Shown: one piece after another, positions 50,543 through 64,000 of the stretch
Layout of the letters: each line of letters begins with the position of its first letter
How positions within the stretch are numbered: position 1 is the stretch's first letter
Assembly (NCBI GenBank): GCA_001570385.1
Contig: BBYL01000006.1
Location: forward strand, 496,001 to 560,000
Source: Microtetraspora glauca
GTDB taxonomy: Bacteria > Actinomycetota > Actinomycetes > Streptosporangiales > Streptosporangiaceae
Direction: 5' to 3'
DNA: 64,000 nucleotides
The notes under the pieces: model-generated
The model's input: only the letters and a program-made list of their open reading frames with translations
What the model was told of the DNA's origin: nothing
The model's database searches: none
Position numbers and translations under genes: made by a program

Positions 50543-52219
50543 ATGGCGGAAGCCGTCGGCGCAGCGCGTACGGTCATCCTGACCGTGGACGACGACCCTG
50601 CGGTGTCCCGCGCCGTCGCCCGTGACCTGCGCCGACGCTATGGCGACCGGTACCGCGTGGTCCGTGCCGAGTCCGGCGAGTCGGCGCTGGAGGCTCTGCG
50701 CGAGCTGAAATTGCGGGGCAGCCACGTCGCGGTGCTCCTGGCCGACTACCGCATGCCGCGGATGAACGGCGTCGAGTTCCTGGAGCAGGCCCTCGACCTG
50801 TTCCCCGGCGCCCGGCGCGTGCTGCTCACCGCCTATGCCGACACCGGCGCCGCGATCGACGCCATCAACGTCGTCGACCTCGACCACTACCTGCTCAAGC
50901 CGTGGGCCCCGCCGGAGGAGAAGCTCTATCCGGTGGTGGACGACCTGCTGGAGTCCTGGCGGGTCTCCGACGGCAAGGAGACGCCCACCACCAAAGTGGT
51001 CGGTCACCGCTGGTCGGCACGCTCCTCGCAGATCCGGGAGTTCCTGGCCCGCAACCAGGTTCCCTACCGCTGGTACTCCTCCGACGAACCGGAAGGCCGG
51101 CGCCTGCTCCATGCCGCGGGCCAGGACGGGCTTCGGCTGCCGCTGGTGGTCACCCCGGACGGCACCGCGCTCGTGGAGCCCGAGGAGCGTGAACTGGCGG
51201 GCCGGGTGGGGCTGTCGACGACCCCGGCGGCCGACTTCTACGACCTTGTCGTCGTCGGTGGCGGACCGGCCGGCCTGGGCTCTGCCGTGTATGGGGCATC
51301 CGAAGGGCTGCGGACGGTCCTGGTCGAGCGCGAGGCGACCGGCGGCCAGGCAGGTCAGAGCTCGCGTATCGAGAACTACCTCGGTTTCCCGGACGGCGTC
51401 TCCGGGGCACAGCTCACCGATCGGGCGCGGCGTCAGGCGACGAAGTTCGGGGCCGAGTTGCTGACGGCGCGCCAGGTCACCGCGCTGGAGGTGCGGGGCG
51501 CGGCACGCACGCTCCGGTTCTCGGACGGTTCCGAGGTCTCCGCGCACTGCGTGATCCTGGCGACGGGCGTGTCGTACCGGCAGCTGGACGTTCCGGGCGT
51601 CACCGAGTTGACCGGGTGCGGGGTGTACTACGGAGCAGCGCTGACCGAGGCTCCCGCGTGCCAGGGGCAGGACGTGTACATCGTCGGCGGGGCGAACTCG
51701 GCCGGCCAGGCCGCGATGTTCCTTGCCCGGGGTGCCAAGTCCGTCACCCTGGTGGTGCGCGGGTCATCGCTGGCCGCCTCGATGTCGCACTATCTACTCC
51801 AGCGGGTCACGGAGTCCCCGGTGATCTCGGTGCGCACCGACACCGTCGTGGAGGCCGTCCACGGTACGGATCATCTGGAGAAGCTGACGCTGCGCAACAC
51901 GGTGAGCGGAGAGACCGAGACCGTGGAGACCCAGTGGATGTTCGTGTTCATCGGGGCCGCGCCGTTGACCGACTGGCTGGACGGCACGGTGCTCAGGGAC
52001 GGGCACGGGTTCGTCCTGACCGGCCCCGACCTGTCGCCGGACGGGCGCCCGCCCGCCGGATGGGCGCTGGATCGGCCGCCCTACCACCTGGAGACCAGCG
52101 TGCCGGGCGTGTTCGCGGCGGGCGACGTGCGGGCCGAGTCCGCCAAACGGGTCGCCTCCGCGGTCGGCGAGGGGGCCATGGCCGTCATGCTCGTGCACCG
52201 CTATCTGGAGCAGTCATGA
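50543..52219 (+). CDS. Response-regulator/thioredoxin-reductase-like flavoprotein fusion
   Basis: Protein of 558 residues in three parts. A receiver domain (1-135) has acidic VDDD (15-18), phospho-acceptor Asp68 in LLADYRMP, Thr96 and Lys119. A glutaredoxin-like segment (about 150-225) follows. The C-terminal flavoprotein (230-555) has FAD motif GGGPAG (238-243) and a second NAD(P)H motif VGGANSAGQAAM. The redox CxxC of thioredoxin reductases is reduced to a single Cys (LTGCGVYYG), so it is not a true TrxR. ATG after GGAGG. It overlaps the histidine kinase gene by ATGA. Confidence 0.88.
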   Translation: MAEAVGAARTVILTVDDDPAVSRAVARDLRRRYGDRYRVVRAESGESALEALRELKLRGSHVAVLLADYRMPRMNGVEFLEQALDLFPGARRVLLTAYADTGAAIDAINVVDLDHYLLKPWAPPEEKLYPVVDDLLESWRVSDGKETPTTKVVGHRWSARSSQIREFLARNQVPYRWYSSDEPEGRRLLHAAGQDGLRLPLVVTPDGTALVEPEERELAGRVGLSTTPAADFYDLVVVGGGPAGLGSAVYGASEGLRTVLVEREATGGQAGQSSRIENYLGFPDGVSGAQLTDRARRQATKFGAELLTARQVTALEVRGAARTLRFSDGSEVSAHCVILATGVSYRQLDVPGVTELTGCGVYYGAALTEAPACQGQDVYIVGGANSAGQAAMFLARGAKSVTLVVRGSSLAASMSHYLLQRVTESPVISVRTDTVVEAVHGTDHLEKLTLRNTVSGETETVETQWMFVFIGAAPLTDWLDGTVLRDGHGFVLTGPDLSPDGRPPAGWALDRPPYHLETSVPGVFAAGDVRAESAKRVASAVGEGAMAVMLVHRYLEQS

Positions 52220-53673
52220 CCCGACCCGGTACGCGGTGCGACGAGGAAGAGCTGCGTTCCCTGTTCCTTTTCGAAAAGCTCTCTGACGACCAGCTCGCCC
52301 GGCTGTGCCGGGACGGCCGGGTGGAGTGGTCCGACCCGGGCACGGTCTACCGGGAGGGCGACCCGGCCGCGTACCTGTACGTCCTCTTCGAGGGCACGGT
52401 GGTGCTCTCACGCCGCGTCGGCGGCGAAGACGTGGACGTCAACCGCACCTCCACGCGCGGCGTGTACGCCGGGGCCTTCCAGGCGTACCTGGGCGACCAG
52501 GTGCCACAGGTCTACAACAACTCGATGCGGGTCACCGCGCCCTCCCGGTTCTTCGTCCTGCCTGCGGAGACCTTCGCGGAGATCATGCGCGACTGGTTCC
52601 CCATGGCCGTCCATCTGCTGGAGGGGCTGTTCTTCGGGACCAAGAACACGCAGCAGGCGATCGGCCAGCGCGAGCGTCTGCTGGCCCTCGGGTCGCTGAC
52701 GGCCGGGCTCACGCACGAGCTCAACAACCCGGCCGCCGCCGCGGTGCGGGCCACCGCCGAACTCCGGGAGCGGGTGGCCGGAATGCGCCACGGGCTCGGC
52801 GACATCGCGGCCGACCCGATCCGGCGGGACAGTGTCGACGCGCTGGCCAGGATTCAGGAGGACACCGCCGAACTCGCCGCACGGGCCCCCGCCCTCAGCC
52901 CGCTGGAGGCTTCGGACCGGGAGGACGTCCTGACAGAGTGGCTGGACGAACACGGCGTAGCCGACGGATGGCAGCTCGCGCCGACGTTCGTTCAGGCCGG
53001 TTTCGATACGTCCTGGCTGGACCGGATCGCCGCGGCTGTGCCCCCGGACGTGCTCGGCGCGGCCATGCGCTGGCTGAACTGCACCGTCGAGACCGAACTC
53101 CTCCTCAACGAGATCGAGGACTCGACCACCCGCATCTCCGCCCTGGTCGACGCGGCGAAGCACTATGCGCAACTCGACCGGGCGCCATACCGGCACACCG
53201 ACGTACATGACCTGCTCGACAGCACGCTGGTCATGCTCTCGCAGAAGATCGGGGCGGGCGTCAGTGTCGTCAAGGACTACGATCGCACGCTGCCCGAGGT
53301 CGCGGCGTGCCCCGGCGAGCTCAACCAGGTGTGGACCAACCTCGTCGACAACGCGCTCTCCGCCATGGGCGGCACGGGCGCCGACGGCACACTGTCCGTG
53401 CGCACCGCACGGGACGGCGACCGCCTGCTGGTCGAGATCGGCGACACCGGCCCCGGCGTGCCTCCCGAGATCCGTGACCGCATCTTCGACCCTTTCTTCA
53501 CGACCAAACCCGTCGGCGAGGGCACCGGGCTGGGCCTGGACATCTCCTGGCGCATCGTCGTCGGCCGGCACGGCGGTGACCTGCGGGTCGAGTCCGTGCC
53601 CGGCGACACCCGTTTCCAGGTCCGCCTGCCGCTGTCCCCCTCCGACCCGGACACCCCAGAGGAGTCGCCATGA
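52216..53673 (+). CDS. Histidine kinase with N-terminal cyclic-nucleotide-binding domain
   Basis: Soluble sensor kinase of 485 residues with no membrane helices. Residues 10-140 resemble a cNMP-binding domain (YREGDPAAYLYVLFEGTVVL). The dimerization box has the phospho-acceptor His166 in LTHELNNPAAAAV. The ATPase domain shows NQVWTNLVDNALSAM, GDTGPGVP and GTGLGLDISW. It overlaps the receiver-flavoprotein gene before it and the zinc-finger gene after it, so it most likely phosphorylates Asp68 of the fusion partner and links a small-molecule signal to redox activity. Confidence 0.9.
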   Translation: MTRPGTRCDEEELRSLFLFEKLSDDQLARLCRDGRVEWSDPGTVYREGDPAAYLYVLFEGTVVLSRRVGGEDVDVNRTSTRGVYAGAFQAYLGDQVPQVYNNSMRVTAPSRFFVLPAETFAEIMRDWFPMAVHLLEGLFFGTKNTQQAIGQRERLLALGSLTAGLTHELNNPAAAAVRATAELRERVAGMRHGLGDIAADPIRRDSVDALARIQEDTAELAARAPALSPLEASDREDVLTEWLDEHGVADGWQLAPTFVQAGFDTSWLDRIAAAVPPDVLGAAMRWLNCTVETELLLNEIEDSTTRISALVDAAKHYAQLDRAPYRHTDVHDLLDSTLVMLSQKIGAGVSVVKDYDRTLPEVAACPGELNQVWTNLVDNALSAMGGTGADGTLSVRTARDGDRLLVEIGDTGPGVPPEIRDRIFDPFFTTKPVGEGTGLGLDISWRIVVGRHGGDLRVESVPGDTRFQVRLPLSPSDPDTPEESP

Positions 53674-54026
53674 GCCCTGAGCGAGCGATCGACCCCGCCG
53701 TTCCGCCGAGCGGCACCGGCTGCGTCGAGTGCGACGCGGCCGGCGGGTGGTGGGTGCACCTGCGGCGTTGCGCCCTCTGCGGCCACATCGGCTGCTGCGA
53801 CGACTCGCCGTCCAAGCACGCCACGGCGCACGCCAAAGAGACGGGACACCCGCTGATCCGCAGTTTCGAACCGGGCGAGGAGTGGTTCTGGGACTACACC
53901 ACCTCGAAGTTCTACAAGTCCGGGCCCGCGTTGGCGCCGCCGGAGAGCCGCCCCGTCGACCAACCCGTCCCCGGGCCCGCCGGGCGGGTACCCGCCGACT
54001 GGGCCGAACGCCTGGGCGGCGGGTGA
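53670..54026 (+). CDS. UBP-type zinc-finger protein
   Basis: Protein of 118 residues dominated by a ZnF-UBP domain, the fold that binds free ubiquitin C-termini in eukaryotes. Ligand pattern: TGCVECDAAGGWWVHLRRC, ALCGHIGCCDDSPSKHA and HAKETGHPLI. The tail is Pro-rich. It overlaps the kinase stop (ATGA) and has GAGGAG upstream. In bacteria its partner is unknown; the fixed position behind kinase and receiver-flavoprotein genes suggests a role in the same signalling or redox complex. Confidence 0.88.
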   Translation: MSPERAIDPAVPPSGTGCVECDAAGGWWVHLRRCALCGHIGCCDDSPSKHATAHAKETGHPLIRSFEPGEEWFWDYTTSKFYKSGPALAPPESRPVDQPVPGPAGRVPADWAERLGGG

Positions 54027-57425: not shown

Positions 57426-57713
57426 CCCCCGAGGACGCCGCGGGCCCCGGTGGGCGTGCTCACTCCTTCCCGCTGACCAGACATTCCGGATCCGCCCGCC
57501 CGCGCGGGCGGCGGCCACGCGCCGGGATCGATCACACGGTGGCCCGGGTGCAGGCAGGCCGTGCTGTGTGTTACCTCGAATCACTACAAAATGGGCGATT
57601 CGGATGTTCGATGATGGGCTGAGAGTATCGGTTCGATGGCCGAAACCGGCCTGACGCGAATCCGTAACCTGGAACAGCGCGGCACTACCGACAAGTAAAC
57701 ATGACTCTGCGTA

Positions 57714-57728
57714 ATTATCATTGATAAT
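57714..57728. promoter_or_regulatory. Perfect palindrome ATTATCA-T-TGATAAT
   Basis: A 15-base perfect 7-1-7 inverted repeat in an AT-rich pocket. It resembles Fur-like half-sites in inverted order but not the IdeR/DmdR iron box usual in actinobacteria. A regulator site is likely; its target gene is unclear because the nearest intact starts are 540-650 bases away. Confidence 0.4.
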
Positions 57729-58018
57729 GTCCAGGCCCGGAACTCCGGAAAACCGCAGTCGAAATCTCCCGGTCCGAGCCCGCGCCAGCCGGGAAGGAGT
57801 CGCCGGCGGCCCTGGCCGCGGCTCTCCGGCGGACGCGTGGAGGCCGCCTTGGAGTCCTCTTGGCTGCCTGCTCACCGGGCCTGCTCCCGTCGATCGCCGA
57901 CGATTGTTCACCGTGGCGACCACATGACGTCATCGGGCGATGACGGAGCCGCGAATCATCATGAGGCAAACGAAAGAAACTGCGCCGCGTAACGTTATTG
58001 GGCTCGGTTTTTCCGTTA

Positions 58019-58048
58019 TTGACAGCTCTGGTGCGACATGATTATGGT
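58019..58048 (+). promoter_or_regulatory. Sigma70-type promoter candidate for the hydrazine cluster
   Basis: TTGACA, an 18-base spacer and TATGGT lie about 220 bases upstream of the N-hydroxylase start. The -35 is a perfect consensus match. It would produce a long untranslated leader with the pairing elements noted at 58111-58161. Confidence 0.4.
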
Positions 58049-58110
58049 GATCCTCATCGCAGTTGATCGACTCGGGTAGTCAAATGTTCGGCTGGGTGAA
58101 TTTTCCTCTG

Positions 58111-58161
58111 CAATCCCCTGACCGGGGGATTCGCATGATCAACGCCATCCAAAGGGGATTG
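58111..58161 (+). promoter_or_regulatory. Leader with two competing hairpins
   Basis: CAATCCCC (58111-58118) can pair with GGGGATT at 58125-58131 (tight hairpin) or with GGGGATTG at 58154-58161 (longer loop). The two structures exclude each other, as in attenuators. No terminator U-run is evident. Confidence 0.3.
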
Positions 58162-58212
58162 GGACCGGTGAGGAGGAGGTTTCGTCACGCCTCGGCAAAA
58201 CGCGATCAGTGA
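58135..58212 (+). CDS. Possible 25-residue leader peptide
   Basis: A short frame inside the leader of the N-hydroxylase gene, starting at an ATG 7 bases after a G-rich tract. It contains three consecutive AGG arginine codons (GPVRRRFRH), whose DNA also forms AGGAGGAGG, a strong internal Shine-Dalgarno-like run that could stall ribosomes. It overlaps the second pairing element. Speculative; listed because it could couple ribosome stalling to the competing hairpins. Confidence 0.2.
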   Translation: MINAIQRGLGPVRRRFRHASAKRDQ

Positions 58213-58270
58213 TGCGCGAAAACCGGATGGCGCGGGCTGTCGCAAACATATCGGAAAGGTGATTCCGATC

Positions 58271-59617
58271 GTGCAAGAAAAGGCACCTGTTCCTGGCGGC
58301 GACTATTTCCGTTGTATCGGCGTGGGTGTGGGACCGGCGAACCTGAGTCTCGCCTCGCTGTTGTACGCGCATCCCGAAGTGACGAATCGCTTCATAGAAA
58401 AGCGACCCTGTTTCGGGTGGCATGACGGCCAGCAGCTCGAGGACGCCGCATTACAAGTATCGACTCTCAAGGATCTGGTAACCCTCACCGATCCGACGAA
58501 CGCGTTCTCGTTCCTGTCGTATCTGCGTGCCCACGGCCGGCTGTACCACTTCATCAACGCCCAGTTCGACTCGGTCCCCCGCCAGGAGTTCCGTAACTAC
58601 ATGGAGTGGGCCAGCCGCATGAACCACAACGTGGTTTTCGGCGAAGAAGTGCTGTCGATCGACTTCGACGGGCTGTTCCACATCAGGACCACGAGCAACA
58701 CCCTGCGCGCCGAGAACGTCGTGCTCGGCGTCGGCACGGAGCCCTGGCTGCCCGCGCATGCCCGCGACGCCGTAGGCGACGACCAGTTCCACGTCAGCGA
58801 GTTCGTCGGCAAGGCAGGCGATCTCGGCGGTAAGCGGGTGGCCGTGGTCGGCGGCGGACAGTCCGGCGCGGAGGCGTTCCTCAACCTCATCTCACGCCCC
58901 AAGCGTCAGTTGCCGCGCCGGGTCGTGTGGATCTCGCGCCGGCAGAACTTCCTGCCCATCGACGACTCGCCGTTCACCAACGACTACTACACGCCGTCGT
59001 TCTCCGACTACTTCTCCCGGCTGGAGCCTTCGGTCCGCGAGGCGTTCAACCAGCGCCACATCCTGACCAGCGACGGCATCTCCGAGGTGACGCTGCGCGA
59101 GATCTACCAGCGCGCGTACGTGCATCGGTTCGTCGAAGGCGCGGTCGACCTGTTCGCGCTCTACCCCAACCGAGAGGTGTTGCACGTGACAGGCGACGAC
59201 GGCGGCGGATGGGATCTGGCGATCGGCCACAACGACCTCCGCCACGTCACGGAGCACATCGACGTCGACGTCATCGTCTGGGCAACCGGGTTCCGTCCGG
59301 CGCGGACGGATTTCCTCGCCCCGATCGCGCACCGCCTGGAGCGCGAGGGCGACGAGTACCGGATCGACGACAGCTTCGCGGTCGTGTGGGACGGTCCGCA
59401 GGACCGCAACATCTTCGTACAGAACGGCGCGCGGCAGCAGCGCGGCCTCGCGGACCCGAACCTGAGCCTGAACGCCTGGCGGGCCCAGCGCATCCTCGAC
59501 CGCCTGCGCGGCGTGAACACCGAGAGCCAGACCGCCTCGTTCATCGAGTGGTCGGCCAAGCTCCAACCCGACGATCGGGCGGGCCGGGAGCACCAGGGCC
59601 AGGAGATCCACCGGTGA
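58271..59617 (+). CDS. Lysine/ornithine N-hydroxylase (SidA/IucD/PvdA family)
   Basis: FAD- and NADPH-dependent N-monooxygenase of 448 residues that hydroxylates the side-chain amine of lysine or ornithine. FAD motif GVGVGPANLSLASLLY (17-32), then FGWHDGQQLEDAALQVSTLK (44-63), NADPH motif VVGGGQSGAEAF (192-203) and the C-terminal WATGFRPAR. AAGGTGAT precedes this GTG at good distance; a GTG 12 bases earlier is too close to it. It overlaps the DAO gene (GTGA). With the cupin/MetRS fusion downstream the product is probably N6-hydroxylysine used for N-N bond formation rather than for a siderophore. Confidence 0.9.
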   Translation: MQEKAPVPGGDYFRCIGVGVGPANLSLASLLYAHPEVTNRFIEKRPCFGWHDGQQLEDAALQVSTLKDLVTLTDPTNAFSFLSYLRAHGRLYHFINAQFDSVPRQEFRNYMEWASRMNHNVVFGEEVLSIDFDGLFHIRTTSNTLRAENVVLGVGTEPWLPAHARDAVGDDQFHVSEFVGKAGDLGGKRVAVVGGGQSGAEAFLNLISRPKRQLPRRVVWISRRQNFLPIDDSPFTNDYYTPSFSDYFSRLEPSVREAFNQRHILTSDGISEVTLREIYQRAYVHRFVEGAVDLFALYPNREVLHVTGDDGGGWDLAIGHNDLRHVTEHIDVDVIVWATGFRPARTDFLAPIAHRLEREGDEYRIDDSFAVVWDGPQDRNIFVQNGARQQRGLADPNLSLNAWRAQRILDRLRGVNTESQTASFIEWSAKLQPDDRAGREHQGQEIHR

Positions 59618-60678
59618 GCCGGCCGACGGTCGTGGTGGTGGGCGCGGGCATCGTCGGATGCCTCGTCGCACGGGAGATCACGGATCGCGCCGCCGGCGCC
59701 GAGGTCGTCGTCGTCGACCGGGACGGCGTGGGCAGCGGCGCGTCCCGGCGCTCGGCCGGGCTGCACTTCCCGCGCGGCGCCTCCGAGCGGGTGCGCCGGA
59801 TGACCGCCTACAGCGAGGACTGGTACCGGCGGCTGCTCGGCGCCGACCCCGGTGCGCCGATCCACCCGCTCCCGATGACCGTGGTCGCCTCATCCGAGCG
59901 GGCCGCCGAGGTGCACGAGGCGTACCTGCCCAGCGCCAAGCTGACACCGGTCGCGGCGCCGGACGACGACCGGGTCGTGCTGCCCACCGGCGCGGTGGCG
60001 TGGACCGGCGAAGGCTGCCAGCACGCCGACGTCCACGCCCTGTCGCTGCGCCTGGCACGCGGGCTGCGCCCCGCCGTCCCGTTCCGGGAGGGCATCGCCG
60101 TCACCGAACTCGTGTCCCGGGCGGGCGGCGTCACGCTGCGGCTGGGGTCGGGGGAGGACCTCACCGCCGACCAGGTGGTGCTCGCCCCCGGGCCCTGGAT
60201 ACACGCGCCGGCCTGGCGCGACCTGCTCGCCCCGCACGGGGTGCGGGTCAAGAAGGTGATCGCCCTGCACATCGAGGACCGGCCGGGCCCAGGCGCCCCC
60301 TGCGTCGTCTTCCACGACGAGGACGCCTTCCTGCTCCCGCTGGCCGACCGCGGCCACTGGTTGTTCAGCTACACCTGCCAGGAATGGGACGTCGACCCCG
60401 ACCAGCCGACGGACGGCCTGCACGCCGAGCACCTCGCAGAGGCCCGCGCCACGCTCGCGCTGTACGCGCCGGAGCTCGCCGCCCGCTGCACGTCGGGCCG
60501 GGTGTTCTGTGACGCCTACACACCCGACCGCCGGCCGCTGGTGCGGGCCCTCGATCCGGCCGGCCGGATCGTGTTCGCCGGTGGCGCCAACGGATCCGGA
60601 TACCGCCTCGCCCCGGCGATCGCCGCCGAGGCGGTCGACCTCCTCGACCTGACGTCCAGCCGTAGGAGCCAATGGTGA
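59614..60678 (+). CDS. DAO-family FAD-dependent oxidase
   Basis: FAD-dependent oxidoreductase of 354 residues of the D-amino-acid oxidase/glycine oxidase family. FAD fingerprint VVVVGAGIVGCLVAREI at residues 6-22, then SAGLHFPRGASERVRRM, and the C-terminal FAD contact FAGGANGSGYRLAPAIAAEA. GTG start inside the N-hydroxylase stop; its own stop overlaps the next ATG. In hydrazine pathways a DAO-type enzyme oxidatively cleaves the lysine-derived hydrazine intermediate to give hydrazinoacetic acid, and this gene is the natural candidate for that step (inferred from context). Confidence 0.88.
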   Translation: MSRPTVVVVGAGIVGCLVAREITDRAAGAEVVVVDRDGVGSGASRRSAGLHFPRGASERVRRMTAYSEDWYRRLLGADPGAPIHPLPMTVVASSERAAEVHEAYLPSAKLTPVAAPDDDRVVLPTGAVAWTGEGCQHADVHALSLRLARGLRPAVPFREGIAVTELVSRAGGVTLRLGSGEDLTADQVVLAPGPWIHAPAWRDLLAPHGVRVKKVIALHIEDRPGPGAPCVVFHDEDAFLLPLADRGHWLFSYTCQEWDVDPDQPTDGLHAEHLAEARATLALYAPELAARCTSGRVFCDAYTPDRRPLVRALDPAGRIVFAGGANGSGYRLAPAIAAEAVDLLDLTSSRRSQW

Positions 60679-62912
60679 TCATCAGTTCGTACGACGCAGG
60701 CGCGCTGCATGAGCTGTTCGGCATCGACATGAGTTCGATCGACGGGCTGGGGGTCGGCGCCGGATGGGGCCGCGTGGTGCCGGGCGGACGGTCCGACGCC
60801 CACCAGCACGACGAGACCGAGACCTTCGTGATCGTCCAGGGCGCCGGCGACCTGATCGTGGACGCGCGCAGGTACCCCGTGCACGCGGGCGTCGTGGCCC
60901 AGTTCGAGCCGTTCGAGACGCACGTCATCGAGAACACCGGCGATGAGGACCTGCTGTTCGCGACGCTGTACTGGCGGGATCCGGAGCGGGCCGGCCGGCA
61001 GGCGGCGCGGGTCGAGCGCGGCCGGCTGCGGGACCGTCCGGTCTTCGTCTTCTCCACCCCGCCCACCCCGAACGGCGACCTTCACCTTGGCCACCTCTCC
61101 GGCCCGTACCTCGGCGCGGACGTCTTCGTACGGTTCCAGCGCCTCAACGGCGCCCAGGCCTGGCACCTCACCGGCAGCGACGACTACCAGAGCTATGTGA
61201 CCGAGTGCGCCCGGCGTGAGGGCCGCACCCCGGCGGAGACGGCGGCGCACTACAGCGCGGAGATCGCCGAGACGCTCCGGATGATGGACATCCCGCTGGA
61301 CCAGTACACGGTGACCGACGCGGACCCTGCCTACCGCCCCGGGCTGCAGGCGTTCTTCTCCCGGCTGGCCGCCTCCGGCGCGGTCGCCCCCGCCGAGGCG
61401 CCCGCCCTGCTCGGGCCGGACGGCCGCTACCTCTACGAGGTCGACGTGTCCGGCGGCTGCCCCACCTGCGGCGGGTCCACCGGCGGCAACATCTGCGAGG
61501 AGTGCGGCGAGCCCAACTTCTGCCACGACCTGGTGGACCCGTCCATCCGGCACTCCGACGCGGCCCCGCGGGTCGCCGAGGTGACCCGCTTCATGCTGCC
61601 GCTGCACCGGTTCGCCCCCGACGTGGCCCTGCACCACCATCTCGGCCGCGTACCGGCACGCCTGCGTGAGCTCGCCGAGCGCCTGTTCGCCCGGCCCGGC
61701 GTCGACGTGGCGATGACCCACCCGTCGGACTGGGGTGTGCCGCCGCTGGAGGACGGCGCACCGGGCCAGGTCATCTGGGTCTGGCCGGAGATGTCGTACG
61801 GGTTCCTGCACGGCATCGCCGAGCTCGGGAGGCGACTGGGTCAGGACTGGCGCGCCGACGCGCCCCAGGCGGACTGGAAGATCGTGCACTTCTTCGGGTA
61901 CGACAACAGCTTCTACCACGCGATCCTCTACCCGGTGCTCTACAAGCTCGCCTTCCCGGACTGGGCGCCGGACATCGACTACAACGTCAACGAGTTCCTG
62001 CTGCTCGACGGCGCCAAGTTCAGCACCAGCCGGCGGCACGCCATCTGGGGCAAGGAGATCCTCACCCCCGGCACGGCCGACGCGGTGCGCTACTACCTGT
62101 CCCGGATCCGCTCCGAGGGGCGGCGCACCAACTTCGAGGTCGGCGCGTACGAGAGCGCGGTGCGTGACCGGCTGGTCGGGACCTGGCAGGACTGGCTGCA
62201 CGACCTCGGGCGGCGGATGGCGGAGCGGTACGACGGCCTGGTCCCCGACGCCGGCAACTGGACGCCGGAGCACACCGCCTTCCTGGCCCGGCTCGACACC
62301 CGCCGCGCCGCCGTCGCCGGGGCGCTCGGTCCCGACGGGTTCTCGCTCAACCAGGCCGTGGCCGAACTCGACGGGCTGGTGGACGACGTACGGCGGTTCG
62401 CCTCGCTGGAGGCGAGATCGTCGACGTCCCCGGCCTGGCGCGACGAGGCCCGCACCGCCATCGCGCTCGAGCTGGCGGCGGCCAAGCTGCTGGCCGTCTG
62501 CGCGGCCCCGGTGATGCCCAGGTTCGCCGCGAAGCTCGCCGCCGCGCTGGGCGGCGGCGAGATCGACACCTGGCCGCAGACGGTGACGCTGGTCGCCCCC
62601 GGATCCCGGGTCACCCTCGCCGACCAGACCTTCTTCACCGATCCGCGTCCCGCCGTCGACGCCGAGCTGGCCGGCTGGCTCACCGCCACCGTGGCCGAGA
62701 CGCTTCGGCTCGAAGCGGAACCGCCGGCTGCCGACCTGAGCCTGGTCTCCCTCGGAGCGGCGTCGCTGCACGCGGTCACCCTGCAGTACCGGATCCTCGA
62801 ACACACCGACGTCGAGGTCTCGGTCGAGGAGCTGCTCGGGTCGACCATCACGGAGCTGGCCGCCCTGATCGCTCAACGGACGCAGGCGGGGATGGAGGTG
62901 GCTCTGGCGTGA
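60672..62912 (+). CDS. Cupin / methionyl-tRNA-synthetase-like / carrier-domain fusion (hydrazine synthetase-like)
   Basis: Three-domain protein of 746 residues. The cupin (1-105) has metal ligands His44, His46, Glu50 and His84. A class I synthetase core of MetRS type (122-640) has HLGH (138-141), a Cys4 zinc knuckle (Cys263, 266, 275, 278) and KFSTS (449-453) for KMSKS. The C-terminal carrier domain (660-738) has Ser698 in LGAASLHAV for phosphopantetheine. Cupin-MetRS didomains such as Spb40 couple N6-hydroxylysine with an amino acid and rearrange the ester to an N-N bond. Residues matching MetRS anticodon contacts look changed, arguing against tRNA charging. ATG after TAGGAGCCA, overlapping the DAO stop. 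Confidence 0.88.
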   Translation: MVIISSYDAGALHELFGIDMSSIDGLGVGAGWGRVVPGGRSDAHQHDETETFVIVQGAGDLIVDARRYPVHAGVVAQFEPFETHVIENTGDEDLLFATLYWRDPERAGRQAARVERGRLRDRPVFVFSTPPTPNGDLHLGHLSGPYLGADVFVRFQRLNGAQAWHLTGSDDYQSYVTECARREGRTPAETAAHYSAEIAETLRMMDIPLDQYTVTDADPAYRPGLQAFFSRLAASGAVAPAEAPALLGPDGRYLYEVDVSGGCPTCGGSTGGNICEECGEPNFCHDLVDPSIRHSDAAPRVAEVTRFMLPLHRFAPDVALHHHLGRVPARLRELAERLFARPGVDVAMTHPSDWGVPPLEDGAPGQVIWVWPEMSYGFLHGIAELGRRLGQDWRADAPQADWKIVHFFGYDNSFYHAILYPVLYKLAFPDWAPDIDYNVNEFLLLDGAKFSTSRRHAIWGKEILTPGTADAVRYYLSRIRSEGRRTNFEVGAYESAVRDRLVGTWQDWLHDLGRRMAERYDGLVPDAGNWTPEHTAFLARLDTRRAAVAGALGPDGFSLNQAVAELDGLVDDVRRFASLEARSSTSPAWRDEARTAIALELAAAKLLAVCAAPVMPRFAAKLAAALGGGEIDTWPQTVTLVAPGSRVTLADQTFFTDPRPAVDAELAGWLTATVAETLRLEAEPPAADLSLVSLGAASLHAVTLQYRILEHTDVEVSVEELLGSTITELAALIAQRTQAGMEVALA

Positions 62913-64000
62913 GCGTCACCGAGCTGCTGCACGATGTCACCTCGCGCGGCTTGACGCTCACCGCGGTCGGCGGCGACCTGCGGCTCCAGGGGCCCACCGA
63001 GAGGATGGACGCCGAGCTGGTGGCCCGCATCCGGGCGGCCAAGCCCGACCTCCTCGCGCACCTCACCGCGCCGGCCGGCCTCGAGCTGACCCCGCTGCAG
63101 GGCGCCTACCTGTACGGCCGCAGCGAGCTGGTCGAGCTCGGCAACGTCGCCAGCCACGTCTACCACGAGATCGAGGGCGTCTGGGACGTCGAACGGCTGG
63201 AGCGGGCGCTGTGGGCGGTGGTGCACCGCCACGACGCCCTGCGCGTCTCGTTCACCCCGGACGGCCGTCAGATCGTGCATGATCGGGTGCCGGTGCGCAT
63301 CCGGGTGCGCGACCTGCGGGCCCTGCCGGAGCGCGCCAGGCTGAGCAGCCTCAAGTCGTATCGGGAGCGCTGCTCGCACCGGATGTCGCCCGTCGACCGG
63401 CCGCCCCTGGTCAGGGCCGAGGTCAGCGTCCTCGCCGACGACCGGATGGTGCTGCACGTCGGCCATGACGGACTGGTCATGGACGGGATCAGCATGTTCC
63501 TGTTCTTCCGCGAGTGGTGGCGCGCGTACCAGGACGACGGAACCGGGCGGGACGGCCGGGACGATCCCGGCGTGCCGCTCGCGGACTACGTGGCGGAGCT
63601 GTGCCGGGCCCGCGACCGGGCGCCCGCGCGGCGCTCGCGGCGCTACTGGACCGACCGGGTCGACGACCTCGCGCCCATGCCGGACCTTCCACTGGCCACC
63701 AGTCCGTCCTCGATCGCCCGGCCCCGGTTCACCCAGCGGCTGGTCCGGCTCGACGCCTCCCCGTGGCGCGAGCTGAAGCGGCGCGCCGCCGCCGGCGGCA
63801 TCACCCCACCGGCGCTGCTGCTGGCGGGCTACGCGCGGACGCTCCACTACTGGGGGGCCGGAGACCGGTTCACGCTGAACACGACCTTCGCGAACCGGCC
63901 GCCGATCCACCCCCGGATGGCCGACGCCGTCGGGCAGTTCTCCGACGTCATGCTGGTCGAGGTCGGATTCGGGACCGGCGCCACCTTCGAGGAGTGGGCG
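62909..64000 (+). CDS. NRPS: TubC-type docking domain and heterocyclization domain (incomplete)
   Basis: Start of a non-ribosomal peptide synthetase; 364 codons are present and the frame runs off the window. Residues 1-53 (TELLHDVTSRGLTLTAVGGD, ELVARIRAAKPDLLAHL) form a TubC-like N-terminal docking domain. From 58 on, LELTPLQGAYLYGRSELVEL and HVYHEIEG begin a condensation-superfamily domain. The active-site motif is Asp187-x4-Asp192 (HDGLVMDGIS), the DxxxxD of heterocyclization (Cy) domains instead of HHxxxDG. The GTG overlaps the stop of the carrier-domain fusion, which may dock with it and deliver its tethered product. Confidence 0.85.
   Translation, partial: MSVTELLHDVTSRGLTLTAVGGDLRLQGPTERMDAELVARIRAAKPDLLAHLTAPAGLELTPLQGAYLYGRSELVELGNVASHVYHEIEGVWDVERLERALWAVVHRHDALRVSFTPDGRQIVHDRVPVRIRVRDLRALPERARLSSLKSYRERCSHRMSPVDRPPLVRAEVSVLADDRMVLHVGHDGLVMDGISMFLFFREWWRAYQDDGTGRDGRDDPGVPLADYVAELCRARDRAPARRSRRYWTDRVDDLAPMPDLPLATSPSSIARPRFTQRLVRLDASPWRELKRRAAAGGITPPALLLAGYARTLHYWGAGDRFTLNTTFANRPPIHPRMADAVGQFSDVMLVEVGFGTGATFEEWA

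What the first reader, a model, noticed from the sequence alone, without database searches (positions are those of the whole stretch)
58271..64000. Hydrazine (N-N bond) biosynthetic cluster reaching an NRPS
Four overlapping genes encode a lysine/ornithine N-hydroxylase, a DAO-family oxidase, a cupin/MetRS-like protein and an NRPS. The first three are the established signature of bacterial hydrazine formation (Spb38/Spb40-type chemistry of s56-p1; similar sets are known for other N-N compounds such as triacsin): N6-hydroxylysine is joined to an amino acid, rearranged to a hydrazine and oxidatively cleaved to hydrazinoacetate. Feeding this directly into an NRPS that starts with a heterocyclization domain suggests an unusual N-N-containing heterocyclic peptide.
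Basis: partly seen in the sequence, partly recalled or inferred. Interest (0 to 1): 0.92.

Follow-up and report, generated by a model that had tools for sequence, protein, structure and literature searches.

The report
Azaserine-type diazo cluster with extra NRPS
These genes are the left end of a 17-gene bacterial cluster that closely matches the known pathway to the diazo antibiotic azaserine, with one extra peptide-building enzyme and its release enzyme, which suggests the product is a new azaserine-like peptide rather than the heterocyclic peptide first proposed.

Summary
In detail: four overlapping genes encode an N-hydroxylase, a DAO-type oxidase, a cupin/MetRS-like protein and an NRPS. 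I followed the contig past the window. The whole cluster has 17 genes (58.27-82.56 kb). Fifteen match azaserine (azs) genes in family, domain order or direct homology: azsL, M, N, O, P, Q, S, T, C, D, E, F, G, K and B. This includes the diagnostic carrier domain at the end of the cupin/MetRS protein. The NRPS is TubC_N-Cy-A-CP. Two genes are not in azs: an NRPS module C-A-CP (X) and a stand-alone TE (Y). M. niveoalba has the same block, 96% identical, at another genomic site. In my sample X-type A domains occur only in six Streptosporangiaceae azs clusters and share a binding code, which points to an azaserine-containing peptide (inferred). AzsE is the only candidate hydrazone oxidase linked to all 19 AzsN-CP clusters from unbiased searches; P450 AzsG is missing from 8. 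Verdict: new variant of a known kind. All product assignments are predictions.

The parts
57548..64000 (.). Left end of a 25.6 kb block (to 83132 in extended coordinates) that is collinear at 96% DNA identity in M. niveoalba but lies at a different genomic site
   Evidence: one blastn alignment 57548-83132; flanks do not match there
58271..59617 (+). L-lysine N6-monooxygenase, AzsL/Spb38/Tri26-like
   Evidence: PF13434 E 4e-91
59614..60678 (+). FAD oxidase (DAO family), AzsM/Spb39/Tri27-like, predicted to cleave the hydrazine adduct to hydrazinoacetate
   Evidence: PF01266 E 5e-32
60672..62912 (+). Hydrazine synthase AzsN-like: cupin, MetRS-like, carrier protein
   Evidence: PF07883, PF09334, PF19303, PF00550; HxHx3E...H at H44/H46/E50/H84, HLGH, KFSTS
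60771..60959 (+). Cupin domain (N-N forming, Zn site)
   Evidence: Pfam residues 34-96; same ligand spacing as PyrN H50/H52/E56/H90
61059..62192 (+). MetRS-like domain
   Evidence: Pfam residues 130-507
62676..62870 (+). C-terminal carrier domain, diagnostic of AzsN as against Spb40/Tri28
   Evidence: Pfam residues 669-733; PMC10445470
62909..64000 (+). AzsO-like NRPS, TubC_N-Cy-A-CP; gene continues to 66274 beyond the window
62915..63064 (+). TubC_N docking domain
   Evidence: PF18563 residues 3-52; aligns to the EpoB docking-Cy structure 5t7z
63080..64000 (+). Cy domain with ester-forming signature (DxxxxD kept, Thr to Asn, Asp to Asn); ends near 64340

Best explanation
This is an azaserine-type (azs) cluster with one added peptide module. 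Steps predicted by homology to characterised enzymes: L hydroxylates lysine; N joins N6-hydroxylysine to glycine and rearranges the ester to a hydrazine; M cleaves it to hydrazinoacetate; S succinylates it; P loads it on carrier Q; T and F desuccinylate and dehydrogenate it to the hydrazonoacetyl thioester; D moves that group to the carrier domain of N; the Cy domain of O esterifies it onto the side-chain hydroxyl of serine held on O. Inferred: the HDO enzyme E oxidises the hydrazone to the diazo group. Inferred and specific to this variant: the extra module X (C-A-CP) and its TE Y join this residue, or free azaserine released by B, to a further amino acid and release a small azaserine-type peptide. 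Confidence in the core pathway to O-(hydrazonoacetyl)serine is about 0.9; in the peptide extension about 0.55.
For: Domain content matches azs for 15 genes, including CP-bearing N directly upstream of Cy-A-CP O, which the azs authors found to be characteristic. Cy residues N/N with DxxxxD intact. O A-code DLYNMSLIWK is Cys-like, and antiSMASH likewise called AzsO Cys although it uses Ser. Catalytic residues are intact and conserved. 13 Streptomyces azs-type clusters lack X; in 200 family genomes X-type A domains (E<=1e-150) occur in six, exactly those with azs+X clusters. The code DVMC[IL][AS]GIGK is kept in X and in the loading modules of four related clusters while the other modules vary. 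Y is homologous (38-42%) to the C-terminal TE domains of those NRPSs, and X and Y carry similar N-terminal helices. All 19 AzsN-CP clusters from unbiased searches have E.
Against: No product is known. Identities are to relatives from genome searches, not to the azs proteins themselves, whose sequences I did not hold. A true azsB is present, so the serine ester could simply be released as in azaserine. O lacks the acidic tail expected of a partner for X's N-terminal helix. In the related clusters the loading module has a dead C domain, so X may not take its donor from O. X's amino acid cannot be read from its code. O has Tyr239 where most of the Streptomyces clusters have Trp239, so Thr or Cys instead of Ser is not excluded.
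Confidence: 0.6

Rival explanations
1. The cluster simply makes azaserine (or the threonine analogue thrazarine); X and Y are accessory or make something separate.
For: All azs-type functions including azsB are present; a canonical cluster without X makes azaserine (PMC10445470).
Against: X and Y are intact, conserved in a second species at 93-97% identity and travel with the block to another genomic site; X-type modules occur only with azs genes in the family sample.
Confidence: 0.25
2. The end product is a nitramine (N-nitroglycine type) or stays a hydrazone instead of a diazo compound.
For: The N-nitroglycine cluster shares the pathway up to the serine hydrazone ester (PMC13274452).
Against: N-nitroglycine needs a second P450, NngS, and a hydrolase; only one P450 lies in the cluster and its surroundings, the AzsG-type one.
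Confidence: 0.1
3. One reading: an N-N-containing heterocyclic (thiazoline or oxazoline) peptide.
For: A Cy-type domain and a Cys-like A-code are present.
Against: Both heterocyclization residues are replaced by Asn, the AzsO ester signature, and the full azs set follows.
Confidence: 0.04

Closest known systems
Azaserine clusters azs (Streptomyces fragilis) / aza (Glycomyces harbinensis)
   Same: Same families and domain architectures for L-T, C-G, K and B, with N-CP directly upstream of Cy-A-CP O, and the same ester-type Cy substitutions
   Different: Extra C-A-CP module X and stand-alone TE Y; no saccharopine dehydrogenases H/I, ATP-grasp J or LuxR regulator found among the called genes; different gene order
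N-nitroglycine cluster nng (S. noursei, S. yunnanensis)
   Same: Shared pathway to the serine hydrazone ester; HDO homologue NngH
   Different: No second P450 (NngS) here; X and Y added
Triacsin cluster (Tri22, Tri26-31, Tri13)
   Same: Shared hydrazonoacetyl-carrier machinery
   Different: No polyketide synthase; NRPS Cy-A-CP and AzsE instead; N has a carrier domain
Dob cluster (4-diazo-3-oxobutanoate, Nocardia)
   Same: Hydrazonoacetyl carrier chemistry, diazo by hydrazone oxidation
   Different: Dob uses a PKS and the ferritin-like oxidase Dob3; here NRPS and an HDO
s56-p1 (Spb38/39/40)
   Same: Hydrazinoacetate formation
   Different: Spb40 has no carrier domain
   Same: azs core plus X-type modules with the same first A-code
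   Different: Several X modules (four in G585, three in G429), some TE-fused; loading module with dead C domain; no azsF or azsG nearby

Membership tests
Azaserine-type (azs) cluster | Lys N-hydroxylase, DAO oxidase and cupin/MetRS hydrazine synthase | tested here: met
Azaserine-type (azs) cluster | Carrier domain fused to the cupin/MetRS protein, directly upstream of the NRPS | tested here: met
   criterion from PMC10445470
Azaserine-type (azs) cluster | NRPS Cy-A-CP with Thr to Asn substitution in Cy | tested here: met
Azaserine-type (azs) cluster | GNAT, AMP ligase, carrier, C45 hydrolase, acyl-CoA dehydrogenase, KASIII-like transferase (S, P, Q, T, F, D) | tested here: met
Azaserine-type (azs) cluster | HDO-like AzsE and P450 AzsG | tested here: met
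Azaserine-type (azs) cluster | Type II thioesterase AzsB | tested here: met
   81760-82557, 54% identical to the homologue in G585
Azaserine-type (azs) cluster | Product azaserine | not testable with these tools
   needs expression and mass spectrometry
N-nitroglycine (nng) cluster | Second P450 NngS | tested here: not met
   one P450 signature in 45-100 kb extended coordinates
Hydroxamate siderophore cluster | N-hydroxylase feeding hydroxamate acylation, no N-N machinery | tested here: not met
Heterocyclizing Cy domain | Conserved Thr and Asp for cyclodehydration | tested here: not met
   both are Asn

The most novel reading that the evidence does not exclude
A family of azaserine-containing peptides: the DVMC[IL][AS]GIGK adenylation domain activates azaserine (or its hydrazone precursor) itself as the fixed warhead residue, and the further modules, variable between species, extend it. 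Diazo peptides of this route are not described in the papers I could read.
Probability: 0.35. Interest if true: 0.72.

Novelty: new variant of a known kind. Interest (0 to 1): 0.52.

Why it matters
Azaserine-type diazo amino acids are glutamine antagonists, and few natural diazo compounds are known. A peptide version would be a new compound class with a defined warhead. The comparison also bears on an open step: PMC13061610 (2026) states that the hydrazone oxidoreductase of azaserine is unidentified. AzsE is linked to 19 of 19 AzsN-CP clusters from unbiased searches while P450 AzsG is missing from 8, so AzsE is the better candidate, in line with the NngH knockout reported for N-nitroglycine. 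Clusters with neither AzsG nor AzsF nearby offer a direct test.

Tried and rejected
My first gene calling missed azsB, because an antisense frame at 81685-82257 was called instead; a homology search corrected it, and I dropped an argument built on its absence. The substrate of X could not be read from its Stachelhaus code: DVMCIAGIGK matched none I know. Literature searches for azaserine dipeptides or for Microtetraspora hydrazines gave nothing relevant. No terminal repeats at the block ends. NCBIfam gave no azaserine-specific names. The genome-contig scan gave only three relatives. Foldseek alone gave no E<=0.001 match for AzsE. The supplement of PMC13061610, which may show this architecture among its five new cluster types, could not be read.

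Full report
Observation. The four genes are real and overlap by 4, 7 and 4 bp: 58271-59617, 59614-60678, 60672-62912 and 62909-66274, the last running past the window. Pfam gives Lys/Orn monooxygenase, DAO, cupin plus MetRS plus a carrier domain, and TubC_N plus Condensation/Cy plus AMP-binding plus carrier. The window is G000:C6:496001-560000 of a 621 kb contig, so I read on to the right; coordinates above 64000 below are the window's numbering continued.

The whole cluster. All genes are on the + strand: L 58271-59617, M 59614-60678, N 60672-62912, O 62909-66274, P (AMP ligase) 66271-67794, Q (carrier) 67784-68050, S (GNAT) 68047-68679, T (C45/AAT hydrolase) 68679-69725, C (PEP mutase/isocitrate lyase family) 69754-70596, D (KASIII-like) 70593-71516, E (iron-containing redox enzyme, PF14518) 71545-73740, F (acyl-CoA dehydrogenase) 73740-75014, G (P450) 75025-76185, K (MFS) 76243-77559, X (NRPS C-A-CP) 77586-80846, Y (TE) 80877-81758, B (type II TE) 81760-82557. 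I use the letters of the azs cluster of PMC10445470. Assignment rests on family, domain order and direct homology among the clusters compared here; I did not hold the S. fragilis protein sequences.

Why azaserine-type. The azs authors report that cupin/MetRS homologues with a carrier domain are mostly encoded in putative azaserine clusters and that all such genes lie just upstream of an azsO homologue; both hold here. They show that AzsO's Cy domain makes an ester on serine and that Thr and Asp of ordinary Cy domains are Asn in it. In this Cy domain the aligned residues are also Asn (PYTFNCAIG against FTS in HMWP2 and BmdB; QTPQVWLN against QTPQVWID in HMWP2), with DxxxxD intact. The O A-code is DLYNMSLIWK; most of the Streptomyces clusters have DLWN[ML]SL[IV]WK, two have DLYNMSLVWK. 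So serine is likely, and threonine or cysteine not excluded.

Intact enzymes. The cupin ligand spacing H44, H46, E50, H84 equals PyrN's H50, H52, E56, H90; HLGH and KFSTS of the MetRS-like part are conserved across relatives, as are C112 of T, C121 of D, S39 of Q and C342 of G.

Relatives. AzsE relatives were sought in 341 family genomes, 396 from the phylum and 393 Streptomyces, and in GTDB contigs. M. niveoalba NBRC 15239 carries the same genes in the same order at 93-97% protein identity. A single 25.6 kb DNA alignment at 96% spans 57548-83132 and stops sharply; the right flank lies on another contig there and the left flank is absent. So the block sits at different sites in the two genomes; no terminal repeats were seen. 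The 13 Streptomyces clusters have the azs core without X.

The extra NRPS. X-type A domains at E<=1e-150 occur in 6 of 200 family genomes: the own genome, M. niveoalba, G585, G440, G429 and G430, all with azs clusters. In four of these clusters the module with code DVMCL[AS]GIGK has a broken C-domain motif (HRAVLDD, HQIAFDD, HQTAFDD) and so looks like a loading module, while following modules have other codes. X here has DVMCIAGIGK, an intact HHSVFDG and an N-terminal helix, and its C domain is somewhat closer to the elongation modules. A conserved first residue with variable followers is what a fixed warhead would give, but this is inference. Y is homologous to the fused TE domains of those NRPSs and begins with a helix like that of X, while X ends in an acidic tail, so Y probably docks on X (inference).

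The diazo-forming step. Searches with N, not E, gave 8 clusters with O in the family and 11 CP-bearing N loci in 316 Streptomyces. E is linked to all 19 (in G440 and G430 on a separate contig; in G430 cut by the contig end), F to 13 and G to 11; no P450 signature lies in the fetched regions of the other eight. Fragmented assemblies weaken this for G440 and G430. PMC13274452 reports that knockouts by others make NngH (the HDO) essential for N-nitroglycine and NngJ not required. An AlphaFold model of E (pLDDT 79) matches HDO structures in two places: residues 19-293 to the N-oxygenase HrmI (Z 17.3, 3.6 A over 258 residues) and 433-715 to SznF (Z 11.1, 3.6 A over 230). These are helical folds, so Z values near 11 are only moderate. 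Conserved E561, H571, E624, H661, D665 and H671 are likely metal ligands of the C-terminal domain (assignment by spacing to SznF, inferred).

Verdict. Real, well defined and mostly explained by published azaserine chemistry; the added peptide module makes it a new variant. No product has been shown.

Noticed in passing
L006:13545-15737 (AzsE): The model suggests two HDO-like folds in tandem; the azs paper describes only the C-terminal one. Whether the N-terminal one binds metal was not tested.
   Followed up: partly
57548-83132, extended window coordinates: The cluster block sits at different genomic sites in two Microtetraspora genomes, with sharp ends and no terminal repeats found.
   Followed up: partly
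L110-L113 (G964, G876): Two Streptomyces azs-type clusters lack both the acyl-CoA dehydrogenase F and any P450 nearby, so what makes the hydrazone there is unclear.
   Followed up: no
L115, L046-L047 and L118, L051-L052 (G678, G661): MetRS-carrier proteins that match from residue 104 or 109 on, apparently without the cupin domain, next to O, with a 40% identical N-hydroxylase; G661 also has KS- and SDR-like genes.
   Followed up: no
L054-L057 (G669, G631): Clusters with E, F and G but a cupin/MetRS protein without carrier domain and no O: a different architecture.
   Followed up: no
50543-54026: Response regulator fused to a thioredoxin reductase-like protein, beside a cyclic-nucleotide-type sensor kinase and a small zinc-finger-like protein; read by eye, no family search run.
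   Followed up: no
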